From positions 124,001 through 188,000 of the forward strand of contig NZ_JACJUQ010000004.1 in the NCBI RefSeq assembly GCF_014235845.1: a DNA stretch of 64,000 bases, written 5' to 3'. This document shows, one piece after another, positions 3,693 to 24,667 of the stretch. The notes under the pieces were generated by a model, which was given only the letters and a program-made list of their open reading frames with translations, had not been told where the DNA came from and did no database searches. This DNA comes from Pontivivens nitratireducens (GTDB lineage: Bacteria > Pseudomonadota > Alphaproteobacteria > Rhodobacterales > Rhodobacteraceae). Numbering within the stretch: the stretch's first letter is position 1; every line of letters starts with the position of its first letter. Position numbers and translations under genes: made by a program.

Positions 3693-5978
3693 TCAGCCGT
3701 AACTGGCGACCGGCGTTCCCGCCAGTGCCGAGATATTCAGCAACCCGCGAGCCGTGATCGAGCTGGTGACGATATGCGCCCGATTGCCCATCCCCATCAG
3801 GATCGGCCCGACCTCCAGACCCCCGGCCTTGATCTTCAAAATATTGCGAACCCCCGATGCGGCATCCGCATTGGCAAAGATCAGGACGTTGGCCGCGCCC
3901 TTCATCCGGCTGTCGGGGAATATCCGGGCCCGCAGGTCCGGGTCGAGCGCCGCGTCGGAATGCATCTCGCCCTCATATTCGAAATCGAGCGATTGTGCGT
4001 CCAGCATTTCGAGCGCTGCTCGCATCCGCCGCCCGCTTTCGGTGTTCAGATTGCCAAATTGCGAGTGAGAGCACAGCGCGATCTTGGGCTCCAGACCGAA
4101 GCGCCGCACATGACGCGCGGCACCTATGACGATACCCGCGATCTGTTCGGCAGAGGGTTCGGGATGCACATGCGTGTCCGCGATGAACAGGGCACCAGAC
4201 TCAAGTATCATCAGGCTCAACGCGCCGATAGGTTTGCGCCCCTGCCCGCCCAGAACCTGTTCGATATAGTTCAGGTGCCACAGATACTGCCCGAACGTCC
4301 CGCAGATCAGGCTGTCAGCCTCACCGCGATTGACCATAACCGCGCCGATTGCCGTGGTGTTGGTGCGCATGATCGCGCGGGCCAGATCCGGGGTCACGCC
4401 CCTGCGCGCCATCAGGCCATGATAGGTTTCCCAGTAATCGCGATAGCGCGGATCGCTTTCGGGATTCACGATTTCATAATTGTCGGTGTTCAGCGGAATG
4501 CCACTGCGCGCGGCACGGCTGGCGATCACCTCCGGCCGTCCGATCAGGATCGGGCGATCGATCGTTTCCTCGGACATCGCGAAGGCGGCCCGCAGCACGC
4601 GCTCGTCCTCCCCCTCGGCAAAGACGAGGCGGCGCGGGGAACTGCGCGACGCCTCGAAAACCGGCTTCATGATGAGGGCGGAGCGATAGACGGAGCTGTC
4701 CAGCTTCTCCTTGTAGGCCTGCAAATCCGCGACCGGGCGCGAGGCAACGCCGCTGTCCATCGCGGCCTTGGCCACGGCCCCGGCGACCACCGCCAGCAGG
4801 CGCGGGTCGAAGGGTTTGGGGATCAGGTATTCCGGACCGAAGACCAGCCGCTCCCCCTGATAGGCCGCCGCAGCCTCGGCGCTGGAGGACGCGCGGGCAA
4901 GCTCCGCGATCCCCTCGACGCAGGCGATTTTCATGGCCTCGTTGATTTCCGTCGCACCCACGTCCAGCGCCCCGCGAAAGATAAACGGGAAGCACAGGAC
5001 GTTGTTGACCTGATTGGCATAGTCCGAACGACCCGTGGCGATCAGCGCGTCGGGCTTGATGGCGCGAACCTCGTCCGGGTCGATTTCGGGGTTGGGGTTG
5101 GCCAAAGCCAGGATGATCGGCGCATCCGCCATCCTCGCGACCATCTCGGGCTTCAGCACGTTCGGGCCGGACAGGCCCAGAAACAGGTCCGCCCCCTCTA
5201 TCACGTCGCCCAGCCCCCGCGGGCCGCCGGGCTGCGCGTATTCGGCCTTTTGCGGGGTCATGTCCGCCTCGCGCCCCTCATGCACCAGCCCGGCCAGATC
5301 GCACAGGAACACATTCTCACGCCGGACCCCCAGCGCCAGCAACATGTTCAGACAGGCGATCCCGGCCGCCCCACCCCCGGTGGAGACGACCTTGATATCC
5401 TCGAACCTGCGCCCTGTCAGGCGCAGCGCGTTCAGCGCCGCAGCACCTACGACGATGGCGGTGCCGTGCTGATCGTCGTGAAAGACCGGAATGTTCATCC
5501 GTTCGCGGCACAGCTTTTCCACGATGAAGCAATCGGGCGCCTTGATATCCTCAAGATTGATCGCGCCAAAGGTCGGCTCCAGCGAGGTCACGATATCGGC
5601 CAGCTTGTGCGGATCGGTCTCGTTCACCTCGATGTCGAAGCAGTCGATATTGGCGAATTTCTTGAACAGGACGGCCTTGCCCTCCATCACCGGCTTGGAG
5701 GCAAGCGCACCGATATTGCCAAGGCCGAGGACCGCCGTGCCGTTCGTGACCACCGCGACCAGATTCTGGCGGGCGGTGTATTTCGCGGCGGTGGCGGGGT
5801 CGGTCTCAATCTCCAGACAGGCCTCGGCCACGCCGGGCGAATAGGCGCGCGCCAGATCACGTTGGTTGGCCAAAGGCTTGGTCGCACGAATCTCCAGCTT
5901 ACCGGGGCGCGGAAATTCGTGATAATCGAGCGCGGCCTGCCGGTTCGCCTGCCGGTTCGCATCGGTGTTGTCGGTCAT
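3693..5978 (-). CDS. maeB: NADP-type malic enzyme with C-terminal phosphotransacetylase-like domain
   Basis: Decarboxylates malate to pyruvate, probably with NADP. The 761 residues have the MaeB layout. The N-terminal malic enzyme domain shows [24 protein letters not shown] and a Rossmann motif STGGGAAG (usually GAGAAG). The phosphate acetyltransferase-like domain starts near residue 430 ([18 protein letters not shown]) and usually acts as an allosteric module. The ATG at 5976-5978 is chosen for AGGGGAA upstream and the MTDNTD start. Residues near the N-terminus contain a small duplication (ANRQANRQA) from a 12-bp tandem repeat at 5935-5958. With prpE/pcc/mcm nearby it would convert C4 acids from propionate or acetate growth to pyruvate. 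It is transcribed alone. Confidence 0.95.
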
Positions 5979-11136: not shown

Positions 11137-13131
11137 TCACTCGAATTCCATGATGACGGCATCCACGGCAAGGCTGTCACCCGGTTCGGCCTTGATGGCG
11201 GAAACAACCCCCTTGCGCTCAGCCCGCAGGACATTCTCCATCTTCATGGCCTCGACGGTGCAAAGCGCCTGCCCCTCCTGCACCTCATCGCCCTCGGCCA
11301 CGGCGATGGACATGACCAGACCGGGCATGGGGCACAGCAGCATCTTGGATGTATCAGGCGGCAGCTTCTCGGGCATCAGCGCTGCAAGCTCGGCCACCCG
11401 GGGCGAGCGGATGAAGACCTTGCGAGAGGCACCGCGCCACGCGATGCGATAGCCGTCGGTGATCCGCGTGACCTTCAGCGGCATGGGCACACCATCGACC
11501 GCAGCGTCGATCATCACATCGCCGGGACGCCATTTCGTCAGGTCAATGGTCAGGGTCGCGCCGTCGATGGTCACCTTGAACAACCAATCGCCCGCATCGG
11601 TGACGGTGACGGGGCGGCTGTCGCCCGACATTTGCACCACCCAGTCCGCACCGGGTTTGTATTCGCGTCCCTCCATCGCGCCGGACACCTGCCCCGCGCG
11701 CCGCTGGCGCACCAGATGACAGGCCGCGGCGACGGCGGACAGGCGGGTTGCGTCGGTATCGGCCAGGGCCGCGCCCTCGAACCCCTCGGGGTATTCCTCC
11801 TCGATAAAGGCGGTGGTGATATTGCCCGAAACGAAACGCGGGTGATCCATCACGGCGGACAGGAACGGCAGGTTGTGGCCGATGCCGTCCACCTCGAACC
11901 GGTCGAGCGCGCCGCGCATCTCCTCGATCGCGGCCTCACGGGTCGCGCCCCAGGAACACAGCTTGGCGATCATCGGATCGTAAAAGCGGCTGATCTCACC
12001 TCCCTCATAGACGCCGGTATCGTTGCGCACGCGTCGCTCGATTTCCTGCGGGGGGCGGTAGCGGGTCAGACGCCCGATGGAGGGCAGGAAGTTGCGGAAC
12101 GGATCCTCGGCATAAAGGCGGCTCTCGATGGCCCAGCCGTCCAGCTTCACGTCGTCCTGCTGGATTTCGAGATGCTCGCCATAGGCGACGCGGATCATCT
12201 GTTCGACCAGATCGACGCCGGTAATCAGCTCCGTCACGGGGTGTTCCACCTGCAAGCGGGTGTTCATTTCCAGGAAGTAGAAATTGCGGTCGCCATCGAC
12301 GATGAACTCGACGGTGCCGGCAGAGCAATAATCCACCGCCTTGGCCAACGCGACGGATTGCTCACCCATCGCCTTGCGCGTCGCCTCGTCCAGAAATGGC
12401 GAGGGGGCTTCCTCGATGACCTTCTGGTTGCGGCGCTGAATGGAACATTCACGCTCACCCAGATAGATGCAGTTGCCATGCTTGTCGCCCAGCACCTGTA
12501 TTTCGATATGGCGGGGCTGGGTCACGAATTTCTCGATGAAGATACGGTCGTCACCGAAGGAATTTGCCGCCTCCGATTTGGACAAAGCGAAACCCTCGCG
12601 CGCCTCGTCGTCGTTCCAGGCAATGCGCATCCCCTTGCCGCCGCCGCCCGCGGATGCCTTGATCATCACCGGATAGCCGACCTCGCCCGCGATTTTCGCG
12701 GCGTGTTCGGCATCGTCGATCAGGCCCATATAGCCGGGAACGGTGGACACGCCGGCCTCCGCCGCCAGTTTCTTGGACGTGATCTTGTCGCCCATCGCCT
12801 CGATCGCGCCGACGGGCGGTCCGATAAAGGCGACGTTCGCGGCGGCCAGCGCCTCGGCAAATTCGGCGCGTTCGGACAGGAAGCCATAGCCGGGATGCAC
12901 GGCCTCTGCCCCGGTCTGGCGGATCGCCTCCATGATCTTGTCGATCACGATATAGGACTGATTGGCCGGCGGCGGCCCAATATGCACGGCCTCGTCCGCC
13001 ATCTGGACGTGCAGCGCGTCACGATCCGCATCGGAATAGACCGCGACGGTCGCGATCCCCATCTTGCGGGCGGTCTTGATGACGCGACAGGCGATCTCGC
13101 CCCGGTTGGCGATGAGGATTTTCTTGAACAT
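11137..13131 (-). CDS. pccA: Propionyl-CoA carboxylase alpha subunit (biotin carboxylase plus biotin carrier)
   Basis: Carboxylates biotin with ATP and bicarbonate for PccB; the pair makes methylmalonyl-CoA from propionyl-CoA. In 664 residues it has the biotin carboxylase domain (FKKILIANRGEIACR at the start, GGGGKGMRI in the ATP-grasp, EMNTRLQVEHPVTE), a middle subunit-contact region, and the C-terminal carrier domain with V-E-A-M-K-M-E-N, biotinylated Lys near residue 630. Several small genes separate it from pccB, and the nearest (59 codons) ends 44 bp upstream, so pccA probably belongs to their transcript. The Shine-Dalgarno is poor (GAAAGATC). Confidence 0.96.
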   Translation of the reverse strand: MFKKILIANRGEIACRVIKTARKMGIATVAVYSDADRDALHVQMADEAVHIGPPPANQSYIVIDKIMEAIRQTGAEAVHPGYGFLSERAEFAEALAAANVAFIGPPVGAIEAMGDKITSKKLAAEAGVSTVPGYMGLIDDAEHAAKIAGEVGYPVMIKASAGGGGKGMRIAWNDDEAREGFALSKSEAANSFGDDRIFIEKFVTQPRHIEIQVLGDKHGNCIYLGERECSIQRRNQKVIEEAPSPFLDEATRKAMGEQSVALAKAVDYCSAGTVEFIVDGDRNFYFLEMNTRLQVEHPVTELITGVDLVEQMIRVAYGEHLEIQQDDVKLDGWAIESRLYAEDPFRNFLPSIGRLTRYRPPQEIERRVRNDTGVYEGGEISRFYDPMIAKLCSWGATREAAIEEMRGALDRFEVDGIGHNLPFLSAVMDHPRFVSGNITTAFIEEEYPEGFEGAALADTDATRLSAVAAACHLVRQRRAGQVSGAMEGREYKPGADWVVQMSGDSRPVTVTDAGDWLFKVTIDGATLTIDLTKWRPGDVMIDAAVDGVPMPLKVTRITDGYRIAWRGASRKVFIRSPRVAELAALMPEKLPPDTSKMLLCPMPGLVMSIAVAEGDEVQEGQALCTVEAMKMENVLRAERKGVVSAIKAEPGDSLAVDAVIMEFE

Positions 13132-13175: not shown

Positions 13176-13355
13176 TCAATTGACGGGCACGCTGGCCCCA
13201 AGGCCCACGCCGCCGACAGAACCGCCCAGGTTGAGATTTACCCCACCCGGCCCCACGCCGATGCCCGCACTCGTGCAGGCCGTCAGCATCGACAGGGTGA
13301 GAAAGAGAGTGAAGAAGCGAAGCACGGGGCCTCGCAGGATTTGGATCGAAAACAT
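13176..13355 (-). CDS. Small Gly-rich lipoprotein (59 aa)
   Basis: 59 residues with a lipoprotein signal: an N-terminal Arg, a hydrophobic core and lipobox L-T-A-C at residues 24-27. The mature tail is almost only Gly, Val, Asn, Leu and Ser (repeats of the GVGPGGVNLNLGG type), so it is probably a small membrane-anchored peptide. Its ATG follows the previous tiny gene after 3 bp, and pccA starts 44 bp downstream. No family recognised. It is supported by the lipobox and by operon-like packing. Confidence 0.55.
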   Translation of the reverse strand: MFSIQILRGPVLRFFTLFLTLSMLTACTSAGIGVGPGGVNLNLGGSVGGVGLGASVPVN

Positions 13356-13358
13356 GAG

Positions 13359-13511
13359 CTAGCCCCCCGGCACAATGGCGCCGACGGCAGTCGAGCCGAC
13401 ATCTGCCGCCACGCTGATGCCTTTGCCGACAGCGGAAATGCCAGCGCCCGCCACAGATATGACAGTGCACCCGCCGAGCGACAGCGACATGAGGAACAGC
13501 CCCGCGCGCAT
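13359..13511 (-). CDS. Very small lipoprotein (50 aa)
   Basis: 50 residues. The N-terminus MRAGLFLMSLSLGGC is a short lipoprotein signal with lipobox L-G-G-C (Cys15); the rest is rich in Gly, Ala, Val and Ser (VAGAGISAVGKGISVAADVG), as in small glycine-zipper proteins. The ATG overlaps the stop of the 114-codon gene in TGATG form, so translation is probably coupled, and the next lipoprotein gene starts 3 bp after this one ends. Confidence 0.6.
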   Translation of the reverse strand: MRAGLFLMSLSLGGCTVISVAGAGISAVGKGISVAADVGSTAVGAIVPGG

Positions 13512-13855
13512 CAGATGAAAATATCGGGAAAGTTGCGGCGGGCGACATCCATGTCCACCCGCAACAACGCTTCGTAGGAGGCGGGGTCGAACGGCTCCTC
13601 AGCGGGAACCACCTCCCGACCGAACAGCCAGGACAGGCGACCCGCATCCAGATTGCCACGCTCGAACGGTTCATCGCCAAACGCTTCGATCAGGGCGGCA
13701 AGGAACCCCTCGTCTGCCTCCAGATCAGGTTTGCGGCGGTCGCGATACCGCTCCCGCGCCTTGATCTCCGTGATGCCCTTCGTGGCGGCACGGCGAATCG
13801 TGAATTGATAGTCCGTGCCGCGCAAACGGCCCGGAAAACCGCGATGTTTCAGCAT
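13511..13855 (-). CDS. Conserved-looking hypothetical protein in the pcc locus (114 aa)
   Basis: 114 residues, cytoplasmic, highly charged (KARERYRDRRKPDLEADEG), ending in ARRNFPDIFI. No signal peptide and no family I recognise. The ATG at 13853-13855 follows GAGGGGG; the in-frame open stretch upstream is rejected because this ATG has the ribosome site. That site lies inside a 9-bp inverted repeat (13857-13881). The gene overlaps the 50-residue lipoprotein gene downstream. Its place between pccB and pccA suggests a role tied to that locus, but nothing in the sequence shows which. Confidence 0.65.
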   Translation of the reverse strand: MLKHRGFPGRLRGTDYQFTIRRAATKGITEIKARERYRDRRKPDLEADEGFLAALIEAFGDEPFERGNLDAGRLSWLFGREVVPAEEPFDPASYEALLRVDMDVARRNFPDIFI

Positions 13856-13856
13856 T

Positions 13857-13881
13857 GCATCCCCCTCGGACGGGGGGATGC
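13857..13881. repeat. Perfect 9-bp hairpin covering a ribosome binding site
   Basis: Arms GCATCCCCC (13857-13865) and GGGGGATGC (13873-13881) with loop TCGGACG. It lies between the glycine-zipper lipoprotein gene and the 114-codon gene on the minus strand. The G-run just before the downstream ATG, its likely Shine-Dalgarno, is one arm. It may reduce translation of the next gene or end the upstream transcript; there is no T-run. Confidence 0.65.
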
Positions 13882-13888
13882 CCGCCAA

Positions 13889-14086
13889 TCAGTTGGCCGC
13901 GCCAATCCCTGCGCCAACCAGGCCGCCGACGGCTGCACCGTCCTCGACGTCGTTACCGGTTGCTTCGGCTCCGACCGCGCCAATACCTGCGCCGACTGCC
14001 GCACCCGTCGCCACTTCGCATCCTGCGACACTGGTGAGAAGCAGGAAACCGACGGCTCCTGCGCTGAGCATTTTGGAAATAGACAT
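13889..14086 (-). CDS. Glycine-zipper lipoprotein (65 aa)
   Basis: 65 residues. The signal sequence MSISKMLSAGAVGFLLLTSVAGC has lipobox V-A-G-C (Cys23). The mature part has GxxxG-type repeats (GAAVGAGIGAVGAEATG, then GLVGAGIGAAN), the signature of glycine-zipper membrane peptides. The ribosome site AGGAGGA 4 nt before the ATG is near-perfect, so strong expression is likely. It is outer- or inner-membrane anchored. The exact role is unknown. Confidence 0.78.
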   Translation of the reverse strand: MSISKMLSAGAVGFLLLTSVAGCEVATGAAVGAGIGAVGAEATGNDVEDGAAVGGLVGAGIGAAN

Positions 14087-14100
14087 TCTATCCTCCTGTC

Positions 14101-14116
14101 AGCCCCTCTAGGGGCT
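14101..14116. repeat. Short palindrome just upstream of the glycine-zipper lipoprotein
   Basis: AGCCCC (14101-14106), TCTA, GGGGCT (14111-14116): a perfect 6-bp inverted repeat a few bases before the AGGAGGA ribosome site of the lipoprotein gene at 13889-14086. It is too short and lacks a T-run for a terminator; a leader hairpin or operator is possible. The rest of the 265 bp up to 14351 shows nothing else. Confidence 0.4.
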
Positions 14117-14351
14117 TGATGAAGAGGCGATGCGCATCGAGGCCGCGCAGCGCCCCGATTGCAATCAGTCGCTGGCAGGGCCCGCACTTGGAATGGCACC
14201 GATCTTTTGATCTGTCGAACCCGACAGGACGGTGACACGACGTGCGAACATAATTTTGACCCTGTGAAACTACATGTCTCAGGGAAAAACGTTTGCGCAG
14301 GCGAACCGTTCCACAGCAGCTTAATGCGTCCTATACTGGATATCGTTGGAG

Positions 14352-14441
14352 TCATCGCGCCGCCGCCCGGATCGCATCGAGTTCACATGCGGGCACGGCG
14401 ATGGGGGCCGTGAGCAGCAAAAGGGTGAAAAGCGTCTTCAT
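14352..14441 (-). CDS. Possible 29-residue lipopeptide
   Basis: 29 codons: MKTLFTLLLLTAPIAVPAC, then ELDAIRAAAR. The N-terminus is a canonical short lipoprotein signal with a possible lipobox A-V-P-A-C (Cys19), leaving an 11-residue mature lipopeptide. A purine-rich stretch GGAGAGAGACGAGAG precedes the ATG. The very short length makes chance possible, but it stands in a run of similar small lipoprotein genes on the same strand. Confidence 0.4.
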   Translation of the reverse strand: MKTLFTLLLLTAPIAVPACELDAIRAAAR

Positions 14442-14504: not shown

Positions 14505-14834
14505 CTAGACGGCGGGATCGCCAAGACGCGCGTTCGTGCTCCAGCGGGCGCGACGTTCAGGATCCTCCAACAGGGCGGCGATGCGGCGCTGCACGGTCGG
14601 GGCGACAGGGCCGGACACGCGGCCCCCTGCCGTCACCATCAGCCCGCCGGGCATCGTTGCGATCCGCACCACTGGCGAAAAGCCCCGCAGCGATTGCAAT
14701 GCCCGCCACAGGTCCTGCCGGATCAGATGGGCCAGCCGCCCGCGCCGAAGCGGTGGGAAGCTGGTGCGGGCCGCCACATCGAACCGGGCGGGGCGCTGTC
14801 GGGCCAGCGTCAGGACGTCCGCGTCGCGATCCAT
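14505..14834 (-). CDS. Hypothetical protein in the pcc locus (109 aa)
   Basis: 109 residues, basic, no signal peptide. It has a central FPPLRRGRLAHLIRQDLWRAL and a C-terminal region with PTVQRRIAALLEDPERR. The ATG at 14832-14834 has GGAGGGG 8 nt upstream. It starts 17 bp after the Rho-N-like gene ends, so both may share a transcript with pccB. No family recognised. The Arg-rich helix could bind nucleic acid, but that is a guess. Confidence 0.7.
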   Translation of the reverse strand: MDRDADVLTLARQRPARFDVAARTSFPPLRRGRLAHLIRQDLWRALQSLRGFSPVVRIATMPGGLMVTAGGRVSGPVAPTVQRRIAALLEDPERRARWSTNARLGDPAV

Positions 14835-14851: not shown

Positions 14852-15100
14852 TCACTTGCGCAAGGCCTCGATCAATTCGTCCTTGCTCATGTCCGAGCGC
14901 CCCTCGATGTCGAGCTCCTGTGCCCGATCGTACAACTCCTCTTTCGTCCACTCCTCATAAGGCGGGTTGGAGCCGCCCTTTTCAGAGGCGGAATCGCCCG
15001 CATTGGCGATCGCGGCGGCCTTGGACTTGGAATAGCCCTCGTCGCGCAGCGCCTCGTATTTCTCATCGTCCTTGATGGATTTTCCGTGGTCCTTGGTCAT
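14852..15100 (-). CDS. Rho termination factor N-terminal/SAP-like small protein (82 aa)
   Basis: 82 residues, acidic-basic and very hydrophilic. The N-terminal half (TKDHGKSIKDDEKYEALR, then GYSKSKAAAIANA) has the look of KDEL/ChaB-like stress proteins. The C-terminal half (WTKEELYDRAQELDIEGRSD, then MSKDELIEAL) is a helix-extended-helix of the Rho-N/SAP/LEM type, which often binds DNA or RNA. An excellent Shine-Dalgarno (AAGGAGGA) precedes ATG 15098-15100. It follows pccB by 33 bp on the same strand. Function unknown. Confidence 0.8.
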   Translation of the reverse strand: MTKDHGKSIKDDEKYEALRDEGYSKSKAAAIANAGDSASEKGGSNPPYEEWTKEELYDRAQELDIEGRSDMSKDELIEALRK

Positions 15101-15133: not shown

Positions 15134-16666
15134 TCAGAGTGGAATGTTGTCGTGCTTTTTCCAAGGCAGCGCCTGTTTCTTGTTGCGCAGCGAGGCAAAG
15201 GCGCGGGTCAGGCGGCGGCGGGTGGAGTGGGGCAAGATCACCTCATCGATGAAGCCCTTCTCGGCCGCCTTGAACGGATTGGCGAAGGCCTGTTCGTAAT
15301 CGGCGGTGCGCGCCGCGATCTTGTCCGGATCGCCCAGTTCGTTGCGATAGATGATCTCGACCGCGCCCTTCGCGCCCATCACGGCGATTTCTGCCGTGGG
15401 CCAGGCATAGTTCACGTCGGCCTTGATATGCTTGGACGCCATCACGTCATAGGCACCGCCATAGGCCTTGCGCGTGATGACCGTCACCTTGGGTACCGTC
15501 GCCTCACCATAGGCGAACAGCAGTTTCGCGCCGTGCTTGATGACGCCGTTCCATTCCTGCGAGGTGCCGGGCAGGAAGCCGGGCACGTCCACCAGTGTCA
15601 GCAGCGGAATCTCGAAACAGTCGCAAAAGCGCACGAAGCGCGCGGCCTTGCGGCTGGCGGCGATGTCGAGGCACCCGGCCAGCACCATAGGCTGGTTCGC
15701 GACGACGCCGACGGTGCGCCCCTCCAACCGGATGAACCCGGTCAGGATGTTCTTGGCATAGGCGGCCTGCATCTCGAAGAAATCGCCCTCATCCGCGATT
15801 TTCGTGATGAGTTCCTTCATGTCGTAGGGGGTGTTCGCGTTGTCGGGGATCAACGTGTCGAGGCTGTAATCCCCCCGGTCCGCATCGTCGAAGGAGGGGC
15901 GGACGGGCGGTTTCTCACGGTTGCTCAATGGCAGCATGTCCACCAGACGGCGCACCTCGGCCAGGGCCTCCACGTCGTTCTCATACGCGGCATCGGCAAC
16001 GGAGGACTTGGTGGTGTGGGTGGACGCGCCGCCCAGTTCCTCGGACGTTACCGTCTCATTCGTCACGGTCTTCACCACATCGGGACCGGTCACGAACATG
16101 TAGGAGCTGTCGCGCACCATGAAGATGAAGTCGGTCATCGCGGGGGAATATACCGCCCCGCCCGCGCACGGCCCCATAATGACGGAGATCTGCGGGATGA
16201 CGCCCGAGGCCTCGATATTGCGCTGGAACACCTCGGCATATCCGGCGAGGGAGGCGACCCCCTCCTGAATACGCGCGCCACCCGAATCGTTCAGACCGAT
16301 CACAGGCGCGCCGTTTTGCAGCGCCATGTCCATGATCTTGCAAATCTTCTGCGCGTGGGTTTCGGACAGGGAGCCGCCGAGGACGGTGAAATCCTGACTG
16401 AACACATAGACCTGCCGCCCATTGATCGTGCCCCAGCCGGTAACGACGCCGTCACCGGGGTATTTTTGCTGCTCCATCCCGAAATCGACCGCGCGATGCG
16501 CGACAAACATGTCGTATTCCTCGAAACTGCCCGGATCGAGCAGCACGTCCAGACGTTCGCGCGCCGTCAACTTCCCATTCTGGTGCTGCCGGTCGATCCG
16601 CGCCTGACCGCCCCCAAGGCGGGCATCTGCACGGCGTTGTTCGAGTTGATCGAGAATGTCCTTCAC
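15134..16666 (-). CDS. pccB: Propionyl-CoA carboxylase beta subunit (carboxyltransferase)
   Basis: Transfers CO2 from biotin to propionyl-CoA. The 510 residues show the two crotonase-like halves: [20 protein letters not shown]-type region with [21 protein letters not shown], then [14 protein letters not shown] and [10 protein letters not shown] in the C-terminal half. The open frame continues upstream to about 17878 without a stop, but that part is opposite pccR and meaningless. The GTG at 16664-16666 has GGAGGG upstream and gives the family length. It is divergent from pccR; operator-like repeats lie between them. PccR is known in Rhodobacter sphaeroides to control pccB. Confidence 0.97.
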
Positions 16667-16801: not shown

Positions 16802-18181
16802 ATGGCGCGCACGAAACTCTATGCCGGGGCGAAACTCCGCGAACTGCGCAGGACGCATGAACTGACGCAAAAGGCATTCGCGGCGCGTCTGGGCGTCTCG
16901 CTCAGCTATCTCAACCAGATGGAGAACAATCACAGGCCCGTCGCCTCCTCCGTCCTGTTGGCGCTGGCGCGGGAATTCGCCTACGACATCACGACATTGG
17001 AGGCTGGTGAGGCAGAGCGCATCGCCACCGACATGCGTGAGGCCCTGGCCGACCCCGAATTCGACGACGTTCCGCAGGCGGATCTGACTCTGACCGCCAG
17101 CAATGCGCCCGCATTGGCGCGGGCCTTTCTCAAACTGCATCGGCAGCACAAGGAAACGACCGAGCGTCTCGCCACGCTGGATGAGAAGCTCGCCCATACC
17201 GGGCTGGTCCCGCAACCGTGGGAGGAGGTCCGCGACTTCTTCCACTATTGCGACAATTACATCGACGCCATTGACCGCGCGGCGGAGGGATTTGCCAGCC
17301 GCAACCTGTCCGGGCGTGACATCATGGACGACCTGACGATCTGGATGGCGGATAAAGGCATGACCTTGCGGCGCGTGTCGGGCGGGCCGGTGCGTCATTT
17401 CGATGGCACGGTGCTGACCCTGTCGGATTCGGTGAGCGTGCAGACCCAGGTGTTTCAGGCCCTGCATCAGATCGGCATGATCGCCCATGGGGAGCTGATC
17501 GACGCCACGCTGGATCTGGCGCGGTTCACCTCGGAGGGCGCACGCGCCATCGCACGGGTGGGTCTGGCGAACTATTTCGCCGGAGCGGCACAGATGCCCT
17601 ACACCCGGTTTGCAAAGGCCGCCCGCGACGCCCGGCACGATCTGGAGCGGTTGGCGAGAGATTTCGGCGCATCGATCGAGCAGGTGGCGCACCGTCTGTC
17701 CACCCTGCAACGACCGGGCGCGCGGGGGGTGCCGTTCTTTTTCGTGCGGGTGGACCCGTCGGGAACGATCACCAAGCGCCATTCCGCAACGCATCTGCAA
17801 TTCGCACGGTTCGGCGGTGCCTGTCCGTTGTGGAACGTCCATACCGCGTTTGAACGGCCCGACAGATTCCTGCGGCAACTTGCCGAAACCCCCGACGGCG
17901 TGCGCTATTTCTGCCTTTCGCGTGACGTGTCAAAACGCGGTGGCAGCTTCGACGCGCCCGTCCGCCGGCAAGCCATCGGGCTGGGCTGCGAGATCGCGCA
18001 TGCGTCCGAGCTGGTCTATGCGGACGGTATGGTCGATGGCGCGCCATCATTCGAACCGATCGGCGTCTCGTGCCGGATCTGCCCGCGCATTCAATGCCAT
18101 CAACGCGCCGTGCCGCCGCTGGAACGCCCCGTCCGTATTGATCCCGACCAGCGGGGAAGCCTGCCCTATGCGCTGGATTGA
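16802..18181 (+). CDS. pccR: Short-chain fatty acyl-CoA regulator (PccR/ScfR family)
   Basis: 459 residues. An N-terminal XRE helix-turn-helix (about residues 8-65; [12 protein letters not shown] is close to [13 protein letters not shown], with [14 protein letters not shown]) is followed by an IrrE-like domain whose zinc motif is degenerate ([13 protein letters not shown], no HExxH). The C-terminal domain carries the ScfR cysteine signature [13 protein letters not shown]. Family members sense acyl-CoA and adjust propionyl-CoA carboxylase expression. The ATG at 16802 has GGTAAGGTGAG. It is divergent from pccB, with operator-like repeats between, so it probably controls pccB and itself. Confidence 0.93.
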
Positions 18182-24431: not shown

Positions 24432-24545
24432 AGGGAATCAAGTGGCGGGCCCGTAGCGACCGTTGGGCAACTTATTCTCGGGACCTGGAAAACCAGGTGG
24501 GCACCAGGTGCGATAGGCCAGGACCAGTCGCAGAGCCAGTTCCCT
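24432..24545 (-). ncRNA. ssrS: Candidate 6S RNA
   Basis: On the minus strand, directly in front of fau, 114 nt can fold into a long rod. The closing stem is AGGGAA/TTCCCT, then TGGC/GCCA, then GCGAC/GTCGC. A large internal bubble follows, with a small GTT-GCCC-AAC hairpin in its 3' strand, then a terminal hairpin ACCTGG-TTTT-CCAGGT. Closing stem, central bubble and terminal stem is the 6S design that imitates an open promoter and binds sigma70-RNA polymerase. The ssrS-fau order supports it. It is shorter than the 180-nt E. coli RNA; ends are set by the closing stem and could be longer. Confidence 0.72.
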
Positions 24546-24667
24546 CAAGAAAAAGTAAGGCCTCGTGAATGTAGAGCCCTCACGCGAAGAACAGCACCCG
24601 CCGGGACACAAGGTATGCCGATCACTGCAGGATGCAAGGGGGGTGTCGACTCTGACATTGACGGCGC

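What the first reader, a model, noticed from the sequence alone, without database searches (positions are those of the whole stretch)
13176..14441. A nest of tiny lipoproteins inside the propionyl-CoA carboxylase locus
Between pccB and pccA stand four likely lipoprotein genes of 65, 59, 50 and possibly 29 codons, plus a 114-codon protein. They are packed with overlaps of 1 base or gaps of 3 bp, ahead of pccA. Such small genes are usually missed by annotation. Their presence in the transcript of a biotin carboxylase is unexplained; they might be regulators, membrane anchors or a toxin/entericidin-like pair.
Basis: partly seen in the sequence, partly recalled or inferred. Interest (0 to 1): 0.55.

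Follow-up and report, generated by a model that had tools for sequence, protein, structure and literature searches.

The report
Small lipoproteins inside a propionyl-CoA locus
Between the two genes of propionyl-CoA carboxylase, this bacterium and most relatives examined carry tiny lipoprotein genes around a conserved small protein; of the four proposed here two have relatives, one is unproven, and one is the stump of a deleted gene.

Summary
Three lipobox frames (65, 50 and 59 codons) and a 114-codon gene (p114) lie between pccB and pccA. The 65-codon gene has orthologues under purifying selection in congeners; the 50-codon gene has one diverged orthologue; the 59-codon gene has none found. 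The '29-codon lipoprotein' is not one: it is the signal-peptide start joined to the last codons of a 258-aa secreted protein that a sister species keeps whole.

The pattern is family-wide. Of 122 distinct pccB-pccA loci, 101 hold p114 (no Pfam match, no PDB sequence match) and 92 of those hold at least one lipobox gene on the pcc strand (185 genes, against 3 on the other strand). The usual set is lipoA (about 47 codons, acidic tail, near-C-terminal Lys), p114, lipoB (Gly-zipper). In part of the relatives lipoA follows a promoter-like box and a covarying leader stem-loop at near-fixed distance; a hairpin commonly follows its stop. The window's genus lacks lipoA; a Gly-zipper lipoprotein stands in its place.

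Best reading: small envelope lipoproteins that share PCC's locus, not PCC subunits, anchors or toxins; function is inferred. Boldest reading: lipoA stands in for Braun's lipoprotein, whose homologues these bacteria are reported to lack.

The parts
13889..14086 (-). lip65: 65-codon Gly-zipper-like lipoprotein gene, in the position lipoA has in relatives
   Evidence: AGGAGG site, lipobox VAGC; aligned copies in 3 of 3 congeners, clear orthologues in L116 and L117; pN/pS 0.35 (L116), 0.33 (L117), 0.56 (L115); PF13441 16.3 bits, below cut-off 28.9
13857..13881 (-). 9-bp hairpin between lip65 and p114, holding the p114 ribosome-binding site
   Evidence: GCATCCCCC/GGGGGATGC; in L116 GTATCTCCC/GGGGGATAT, all 9 positions still pair (G-U counted) by reading the sequences printed
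14101..14116 (-). 6-bp hairpin AGCCCC-TAGA-GGGGCT just before the lip65 ribosome-binding site
   Evidence: sequence; conservation not tested
13511..13855 (-). p114: conserved small protein of pcc loci, no export signal seen
   Evidence: 101 of 122 distinct pccB-pccA loci; 0 Pfam families for the window protein; AlphaFold2 pLDDT 87.5, pTM 0.81
13359..13511 (-). lip50: 50-codon lipoprotein gene, start overlapping the p114 stop (TGATG)
   Evidence: 47-aa orthologue at the same place in L116, 51% identical, pN/pS 0.54; NF038104 21.5 bits, cut-off 50
13176..13355 (-). lip59: 59-codon putative lipoprotein gene, unproven
   Evidence: lipobox LTAC; weak match to the lipoB profile, E 8e-5; no convincing homologue in 99 other family genomes
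14352..14441 (-). 29-codon frame: internal-deletion remnant of a secreted-protein gene, not a lipoprotein gene
   Evidence: start (49 nt) and last 21 nt align to the two ends of the 258-aa gene of L116; 0 of 1000 shuffles as high at either end
14505..14834 (-). p109: protein of unknown function found in many relatives' pcc loci
   Evidence: tblastn hit in 40 of 174 loci searched, duplicates and the window's own included
14852..15100 (-). p82: DUF7218 + Rho_N protein
   Evidence: PF23855 E 1.7e-17, PF07498 E 2.1e-7
15134..16666 (-). pccB, propionyl-CoA carboxylase beta
   Evidence: PF01039 E 2.4e-199
11137..13131 (-). pccA, biotin carboxylase subunit
   Evidence: PF18140 PCC_BT E 2.6e-32 and biotin carboxylase domains
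16802..18181 (+). PccR/ScfR-type regulator, divergent from pccB
   Evidence: PF09856 ScfRs E 1.4e-65

Best explanation
The pccB-pccA interval of Rhodobacteraceae is a conserved housing for small exported lipoproteins around one conserved, apparently cytosolic protein (p114). In most relatives the set is lipoA-p114-lipoB; in the window's genus lipoA is absent and one or more Gly-zipper or other small lipoproteins (lip65; lip50 and perhaps lip59) fill the places. Shown: the frames, their position, low pN/pS for most of them, and the hairpin, leader and spacing features of lipoA in part of the relatives. Inferred: they pass through Sec, are lipidated on the lipobox Cys and sit in the outer membrane; Gly-zipper members pack in or against the membrane as envelope-maintenance proteins; lipoA, with a short acidic extended tail, binds a periplasmic partner or the cell wall through its conserved near-C-terminal Lys. 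They share the locus, and possibly growth-state control, with PCC but do not touch the cytosolic enzyme. lip65 is probably a mini-unit bounded by hairpins; lip50 is read by re-initiation at the p114 stop (TGATG).
For: Position and strand: 185 lipobox ORFs forward against 3 reverse in 101 p114+ loci; 92 of 101 have at least one. lipoA profile in 75 of 101 p114+ loci and 0 of 21 p114- loci; lipoB profile in 79 of 101 and 1 of 21; 83 of 87 lipoA hits upstream of p114 and 86 of 93 lipoB hits downstream. Whole genomes: 79 of the 80 lipoA hits (E<=3.4e-10) whose genome has a listed pccA place lie within 6 kb of it; 18 more could not be judged. lipoA invariant M1, C20, E39, K45 in 33 sequences. pN/pS 0.27 lipoA, 0.30 lipoB (pairs preselected by identity), 0.33-0.35 lip65 in L116/L117, 0.54 lip50. 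Leader stem-loop in 28 selected sequences: 5 of 6 pairs with two-sided changes, 24 such cells against 5.2 in shuffles. Trailing hairpin: stem score >=14 in 72% of 74 lipoA loci against 11% of shuffles. Gly-zipper model PF13441 matches 10 of 25 lipoB members at E<=0.1, best 2e-6.
Against: No expression, localisation or mutant data were seen for any of these genes. lip59 has no homologue and lip50 only one. The lipoA profile misses 26 of 101 p114+ loci. lipoA and its leader are absent from the window's own pcc locus, so the strongest evidence concerns relatives. The leader is not general: of 34 lipoA loci not used for training, the model finds it before lipoA in 8 at E<=1, and 6 of its 14 hits lie elsewhere. 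The sigma-70 consensus scan found no excess of promoters before lipoA (0.03 observed against 0.08 in shuffles); the promoter-like box was seen only by alignment. 11 p114+ loci match neither lipoprotein profile (one of them, L128, does have lipobox candidates under its duplicate name L097). Why the genes sit by PCC remains unexplained.
Confidence: 0.6

Rival explanations
1. lipoA is a Braun-lipoprotein-like tether: a short lipidated peptide whose near-C-terminal lysine is joined by an LD-transpeptidase to peptidoglycan, or binds it tightly.
For: Invariant K45 and E39 (33 sequences); K within the last four residues in 74 of 77, last residue K in 42 of 77, tail 22-29 residues after Cys in 69 of 77, about 8 nm if extended (inference); leader in part of the loci and trailing hairpin; C-ending codon share 0.79 against 0.70 pccA and 0.55 p114 (62 loci), as in well-expressed genes; at most two hits per genome in 150 genomes at E<=0.001. 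No Lpp homologue is known in R. sphaeroides (PMC10470522, passages).
Against: In E. coli Lpp the linked Lys is the last residue (recalled); here the last residue is K in only 42 of 77. One of 33 lipoA members matches the Lpp/OprI model NF040598, at E 0.07. PMC9275681 (passages) says beta-barrel proteins do this job in alphaproteobacteria. 44 of 150 family genomes have no lipoA match at E<=0.001, and the window's own match there is a weak partial one elsewhere in the genome.
Confidence: 0.1
2. The lipoproteins or p114 regulate or form part of PCC (accessory subunit, anchor).
For: p114 is in 101 of 122 loci; in the class it was found in 5 of 289 genomes, all five of the window's family (most genomes without a match are unlisted, so misses inside the family cannot be counted); where it is absent the gap is short, median 36 bp of 21 loci against 2,074 bp of 103. 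For p114 alone this remains possible.
Against: Lipobox proteins are exported; PCC is cytosolic. 20 of 21 loci without p114 still have pccA and pccB without either lipoprotein profile.
Confidence: 0.15
3. Toxin, bacteriocin or entericidin-like pair.
For: Gly-zipper proteins can kill on contact (Caulobacter, PMC5380434, title and start of abstract in listings); small paired genes.
Against: No entericidin, bacteriocin or defence match at E<=1 for the window proteins; one of 25 lipoB relatives matches Bacteriocin_IIc at E 0.098 only. No immunity or secretion family among the interval's proteins; no double-glycine leader by eye.
Confidence: 0.04
4. The short frames are chance ORFs or decay.
For: True for the 29-codon frame; open for lip59.
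Against: Strand bias 185 to 3, pN/pS below 1, invariant residues.
Confidence: 0.08

Closest known systems
Gly-zipper small lipoproteins (Pfam PF13441 YMGG-like, PF05433)
   Same: lip65 and lipoB: lipobox, then Gly/Ala-rich zipper repeats; weak model matches
   Different: below the curated cut-off for lip65; housed in a carboxylase locus; no OmpA domain
NF038104 family lipoprotein
   Same: lip50 matches residues 5-50 at E 1.3e-4
   Different: 21.5 bits against a cut-off of 50; not a member by that test
Braun's lipoprotein Lpp/OprI (NF040598)
   Same: lipoA: short lipoprotein with Lys near the C terminus, in part of the loci apparently its own transcription unit
   Different: no alanine-zipper match beyond one member at E 0.07; tail about 26 residues, acidic and Pro-rich; last residue not always Lys
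LptM (NF047847)
   Same: 13 of 33 lipoA precursors match at E<=1, best 0.0011
   Different: in the 7 of 10 precursors that matched the matched stretch ends at residue 20-23, that is the signal peptide and lipobox, and the best score is 19.0 bits against a cut-off of 27.7; 4 mature sequences alone gave no match
Agrobacterium Atu8019 (entericidin keyword, PMC7296081)
   Same: small conserved alphaproteobacterial outer-membrane lipoprotein of subtle function (abstract)
   Different: no entericidin-family match here; sequence not compared

Membership tests
YMGG-like Gly-zipper (PF13441) | score above the curated cut-off (28.9 bits) | tested here: not met
   lip65 16.3 bits
NF038104 lipoprotein | score above the cut-off of 50 bits | tested here: not met
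   lip50 21.5 bits
Bacterial lipoprotein (SPase II substrate) | basic N terminus, hydrophobic stretch, lipobox with Cys | tested here: met
   pattern met by lip65, lip50 and lip59; lipidation itself not testable
Bacterial lipoprotein (SPase II substrate) | lipobox in the 29-codon frame | tested here: not met
   not flagged by the lipobox rule; reads VPAC at the inferred deletion junction
Braun lipoprotein Lpp/OprI | alanine-zipper family model NF040598 | tested here: not met
   1 of 33 lipoA members, E 0.07
Braun lipoprotein Lpp/OprI | covalent link to peptidoglycan through a C-terminal Lys | not testable with these tools
   only the conserved Lys was seen
LptM | score above the cut-off of 27.7 bits, beyond the signal peptide | tested here: not met
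   10 lipoA precursors: best 19.0 bits, matched stretches end at residue 20-23
Entericidin / toxin-antitoxin lipoproteins | match to an entericidin or defence family | tested here: not met
   none at E<=1 for the window genes
Winged-helix proteins (p114) | fold match clearly above background | tested here: inconclusive
   Foldseek best E 1.3; VIA-align rows for residues about 38-114 are mostly chains that I recall as winged-helix proteins, best Z 4.9 over 70 residues, rmsd 3.5

The most novel reading that the evidence does not exclude
lipoA, a ~47-codon lipoprotein with an invariant near-C-terminal lysine, in part of the loci with its own structured leader, and with a fixed place in the pcc locus, is the unrecognised stand-in for Braun's lipoprotein in Rhodobacteraceae, tethering outer membrane to cell wall; in the window's genus this tether has been lost and replaced by Gly-zipper lipoproteins at the same site.
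Probability: 0.1. Interest if true: 0.8.

Novelty: new member of a known kind. Interest (0 to 1): 0.5.

Why it matters
It turns a local curiosity into a conserved, testable gene set in a family of well-studied marine and phototrophic bacteria: a lipoprotein (lipoA) that matched no family above its cut-off, a Gly-zipper partner, and a conserved PCC-locus protein (p114) of unknown function. R. sphaeroides and most alphaproteobacteria are reported to lack Lpp homologues (PMC10470522, passages), so a short lipoprotein with a conserved near-terminal lysine makes that gap directly testable. It also warns that transposon hits between pccB and pccA may strike genes other than PCC.

Tried and rejected
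Sigma-70 and terminator consensus scans on the window: 1 promoter-like site (0.8 expected), on the other strand, and 0 terminators (3.2 expected). Consensus promoter counts before lipoA: no excess. Rfam: nothing at the pcc locus at gathering threshold in window, L005, L008 and L012, nothing at E<=1 in L156, L122 and L124. PDB sequence search for p114: none at E<=10. Foldseek for p114: none below E 1.3. VIA-align: 22 of 70 chains with Z of 2 or more, none of 5 or more. Pfam for the 258-aa secreted protein and its L115 relative: none at E<=1. PADLOC: none for 6 window proteins. lip59 in 100 family genomes (own included): own copy plus two weak hits in long frames (178 and 678 aa), rejected. LptM for lipoA: matches lie in the signal peptide and below cut-off. 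Leader model R1 in 67 sources: 14 hits at E<=1, of which 8 lie 28-48 bp before lipoA and 6 elsewhere on the other strand (E 0.32-0.97); none in window or L115-L118. In 14 genomes, 9 have a hit 45-46 bp before lipoA, 6 of them training loci and 3 new (G012, G135, G056); the window's genome has only a partial hit elsewhere, G002 none, and G131, G159 and G040 have no leader hit before lipoA.

Limits of the counts: one search counted 124 gaps, including duplicate short loci (one of them cut wrongly); one search is the clean recount (122). In one search the profile hits of a few genomes were stored under duplicate names, so its lipoB count of 79 may miss one (one search printed 80). The 28 leaders in A4 were picked from the 46 of 74 upstream regions that passed a stem-loop filter favouring this pattern, so the covariation control leans towards it; 28 of 74 failed the filter, and 13 of 75 lipoA-profile loci were neither in training nor searched. 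pN/pS pairs were limited to 65-98% identity, which lowers pN. In one search 18 of 98 lipoA hits had no listed pccA place and could not be judged; one of those genomes, G075, was then seen to carry lipoA in a pcc locus. The AlphaFold alignment used 29 p114 rows out of 109 collected. Some loci appear both under a record name and under a genome handle; only identical gap sequences were merged.

Literature: no description of these genes was found in the listings and passages seen from the open library with the terms; most subscription papers are not held, and the PccR paper (PMC4560284) was not readable.
Full report
What is there. On the - strand of the window, between pccB (ends 15134) and pccA (starts 13131), lie p82 (DUF7218 and Rho_N), p109, a 29-codon frame, lip65, p114, lip50 and lip59. 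The divergent gene beyond pccB is a PccR/ScfR-type regulator (PF09856). The best-matching named loci are titled Rhodobacteraceae and allied genera, so I take the genome as one of that family; three congeners and a nearby genus gave loci L115-L118.

The 29-codon frame. Congener L116 has, at this place, a 258-codon gene that begins with the same kind of signal peptide and ends with nearly the same last codons. A 49-nt stretch at the start and the last 21 nt of the window's frame align to those two ends; 0 of 1000 shuffles score as high at either end. It is a deletion remnant. Its 'lipobox' reads VPAC, with the Cys at the inferred junction, and did not pass the lipobox rule.

Are the others genes? 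lip65: Shine-Dalgarno AGGAGG; copies align in 3 of 3 congeners (68, 62 and 45% identity) with pN/pS 0.35, 0.33 and 0.56; the third is probably a paralogue. lip50: one orthologue in L116 (51%), pN/pS 0.54, differences 17/14/27 by codon position. lip59: absent from L116, where only 65 bp separate the lip50 orthologue from pccA; own copy plus two unconvincing hits among 100 family genomes; weak lipoB-profile match, E 8e-5. lip59 is unproven.

Family survey. pccA searches gave 80 named loci, the best 80 of a capped list, and 172 of 198 family genomes with a match at E<=1e-250; 60 loci were then read out with longer flanks. After removing short duplicates, 122 distinct loci have pccB and pccA on one strand within 7 kb: 101 with p114, 21 without. 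In the 101, lipobox ORFs of at most 130 aa number 185 forward and 3 reverse; 92 loci have at least one. The usual order is lipoA, p114, lipoB, pccA: lipoA profile in 75 of 101, lipoB in 79 of 101, both in 64, neither in 11; 83 of 87 lipoA hits lie upstream of p114 and 86 of 93 lipoB hits downstream. Where p114 is missing, the gap is short: median 36 bp of 21 loci against 2,074 bp of 103.

lipoA. The precursor is about 47 codons with a tail of 22-29 residues after the Cys in 69 of 77, acidic (mean net charge -2.6) and ending GKYK in 35 of 77; the last residue is Lys in 42 of 77, and Lys lies within the last four in 74 of 77. Met1, Cys20, Glu39 and Lys45 are invariant in 33 sequences. In 150 family genomes, 106 match at E<=0.001, the window's own only by a weak partial hit outside the locus; of the 98 hits at E<=3.4e-10, 79 of the 80 that can be judged lie within 6 kb of pccA. 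Pairs of 65-98% identity give pN/pS 0.27. The window's genus has only weak partial matches elsewhere: lipoA is missing there, and lip65 stands in its place.

lipoA as a unit. Aligning the DNA before lipoA showed a TAnnnT box, a 6-bp stem-loop (typically GGTTGC-ACCCAA-GCAACC) and TTACCTCG. In 28 chosen sequences 5 of 6 pairs change on both sides in at least one sequence; 24 two-sided cells against 5.2 in shuffles (0 of 500), and slid controls pair at 24-47% against 93%. These 28 were preselected for a stem-loop (46 of 74 passed). Outside the training set the model finds the leader before lipoA in 8 of 34 loci at E<=1, 28-48 bp from the start codon, seven of the eight at 45-48 bp; its 6 other hits lie on the other strand away from lipoA. 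In 14 genomes the hit lies 45-46 bp before lipoA in 9, three of them not used for training. So the leader is real in part of the family and not shown in the rest. A hairpin follows the lipoA stop more often than in shuffles (stem score >=14 in 72% of 74 loci against 11%). Rfam gave nothing there in the loci scanned. C-ending codon use (0.79) exceeds that of pccA (0.70) and p114 (0.55) in 62 loci. So lipoA looks, at least in part of the family, like a separate, well-expressed unit rather than a passenger on the pccA message. This is inference from sequence; the E. coli sigma-70 consensus did not detect the promoter.

In the window. A 9-bp hairpin (13857-13881) stands between lip65 and p114, over the p114 ribosome-binding site; the L116 version keeps all nine pairs, G-U counted (read from sequences printed). 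A second small hairpin precedes lip65. The lipoA leader was not found there.

p114. Strongly conserved (58-75% identity to 28 relatives in A1), pN/pS 0.12-0.25. In the class it was found in 5 of 289 genomes, all five of the window's family (most misses are unlisted), and it is also in three loci labelled Rhizobiales in their record titles (L038, L043, L045) and one labelled Rhizobiaceae (L042). No Pfam match for the window protein and only stray matches (best E 0.068) for single relatives. The AlphaFold2 model is good (pLDDT 87.5, pTM 0.81), but Foldseek gives nothing below E 1.3 and VIA-align only weak rows, mostly proteins I recall as winged-helix (best Z 4.9). It is the most PCC-bound part of the set and may be an unrecognised regulator or assembly factor.

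Mechanism. Mature lipoproteins face the periplasm, so contact with the cytosolic carboxylase is not expected. I take them as envelope proteins that share locus and perhaps growth-state control with PCC. A transposon study (PMC12632250, section on the methylmalonyl-CoA pathway) reports propionate-negative insertions in the clusters for this pathway in C. sphaeroides and describes PccR as controlling pccB 'and possible downstream genes'; it names none of these small genes in the passages read (the figure itself is not held). The tether idea for lipoA is the boldest reading: R. sphaeroides is reported to lack Lpp homologues and to have several predicted LD-transpeptidases (PMC10470522, passages). 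Against it, beta-barrel proteins are credited with this role in alphaproteobacteria (PMC9275681, passages), and the terminal lysine is not always last.

Known kinds. lip65 and lipoB are Gly-zipper-like without reaching the Pfam cut-off for lip65; lip50 is a distant, sub-threshold relative of NF038104; lipoA matches no family convincingly, its LptM matches covering only the signal peptide and lipobox and staying below cut-off. No toxin or defence family fits the window's genes.

Noticed in passing
window 24444-24600 (-): 6S RNA (RF00013, 49.6 bits) found by the Rfam scan.
   Followed up: no
L117 (congener), pccB-pccA interval: The order of p82 and p109 is swapped relative to the window, so even the shared genes of this interval shuffle.
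   Followed up: no
L115 (congener), oriented 4293-5115: An extra 129-aa gene that looks RidA-like by eye (4726-5115), and an extra 146-aa lipobox protein (4293-4733), in the pccB-pccA interval.
   Followed up: no
L117 (congener), pccB-pccA interval: Four lipobox Gly-zipper-like genes, three before and one after p114, suggesting local duplication of this gene type in the genus.
   Followed up: partly
L010, L136, L151: Tandem pairs of lipoA-like genes before p114.
   Followed up: no
L038, L043, L045: Loci labelled Rhizobiales or Metarhizobium/Peteryoungia carry a pcc locus with p114 but no lipoprotein profile hit, perhaps by horizontal transfer.
   Followed up: no
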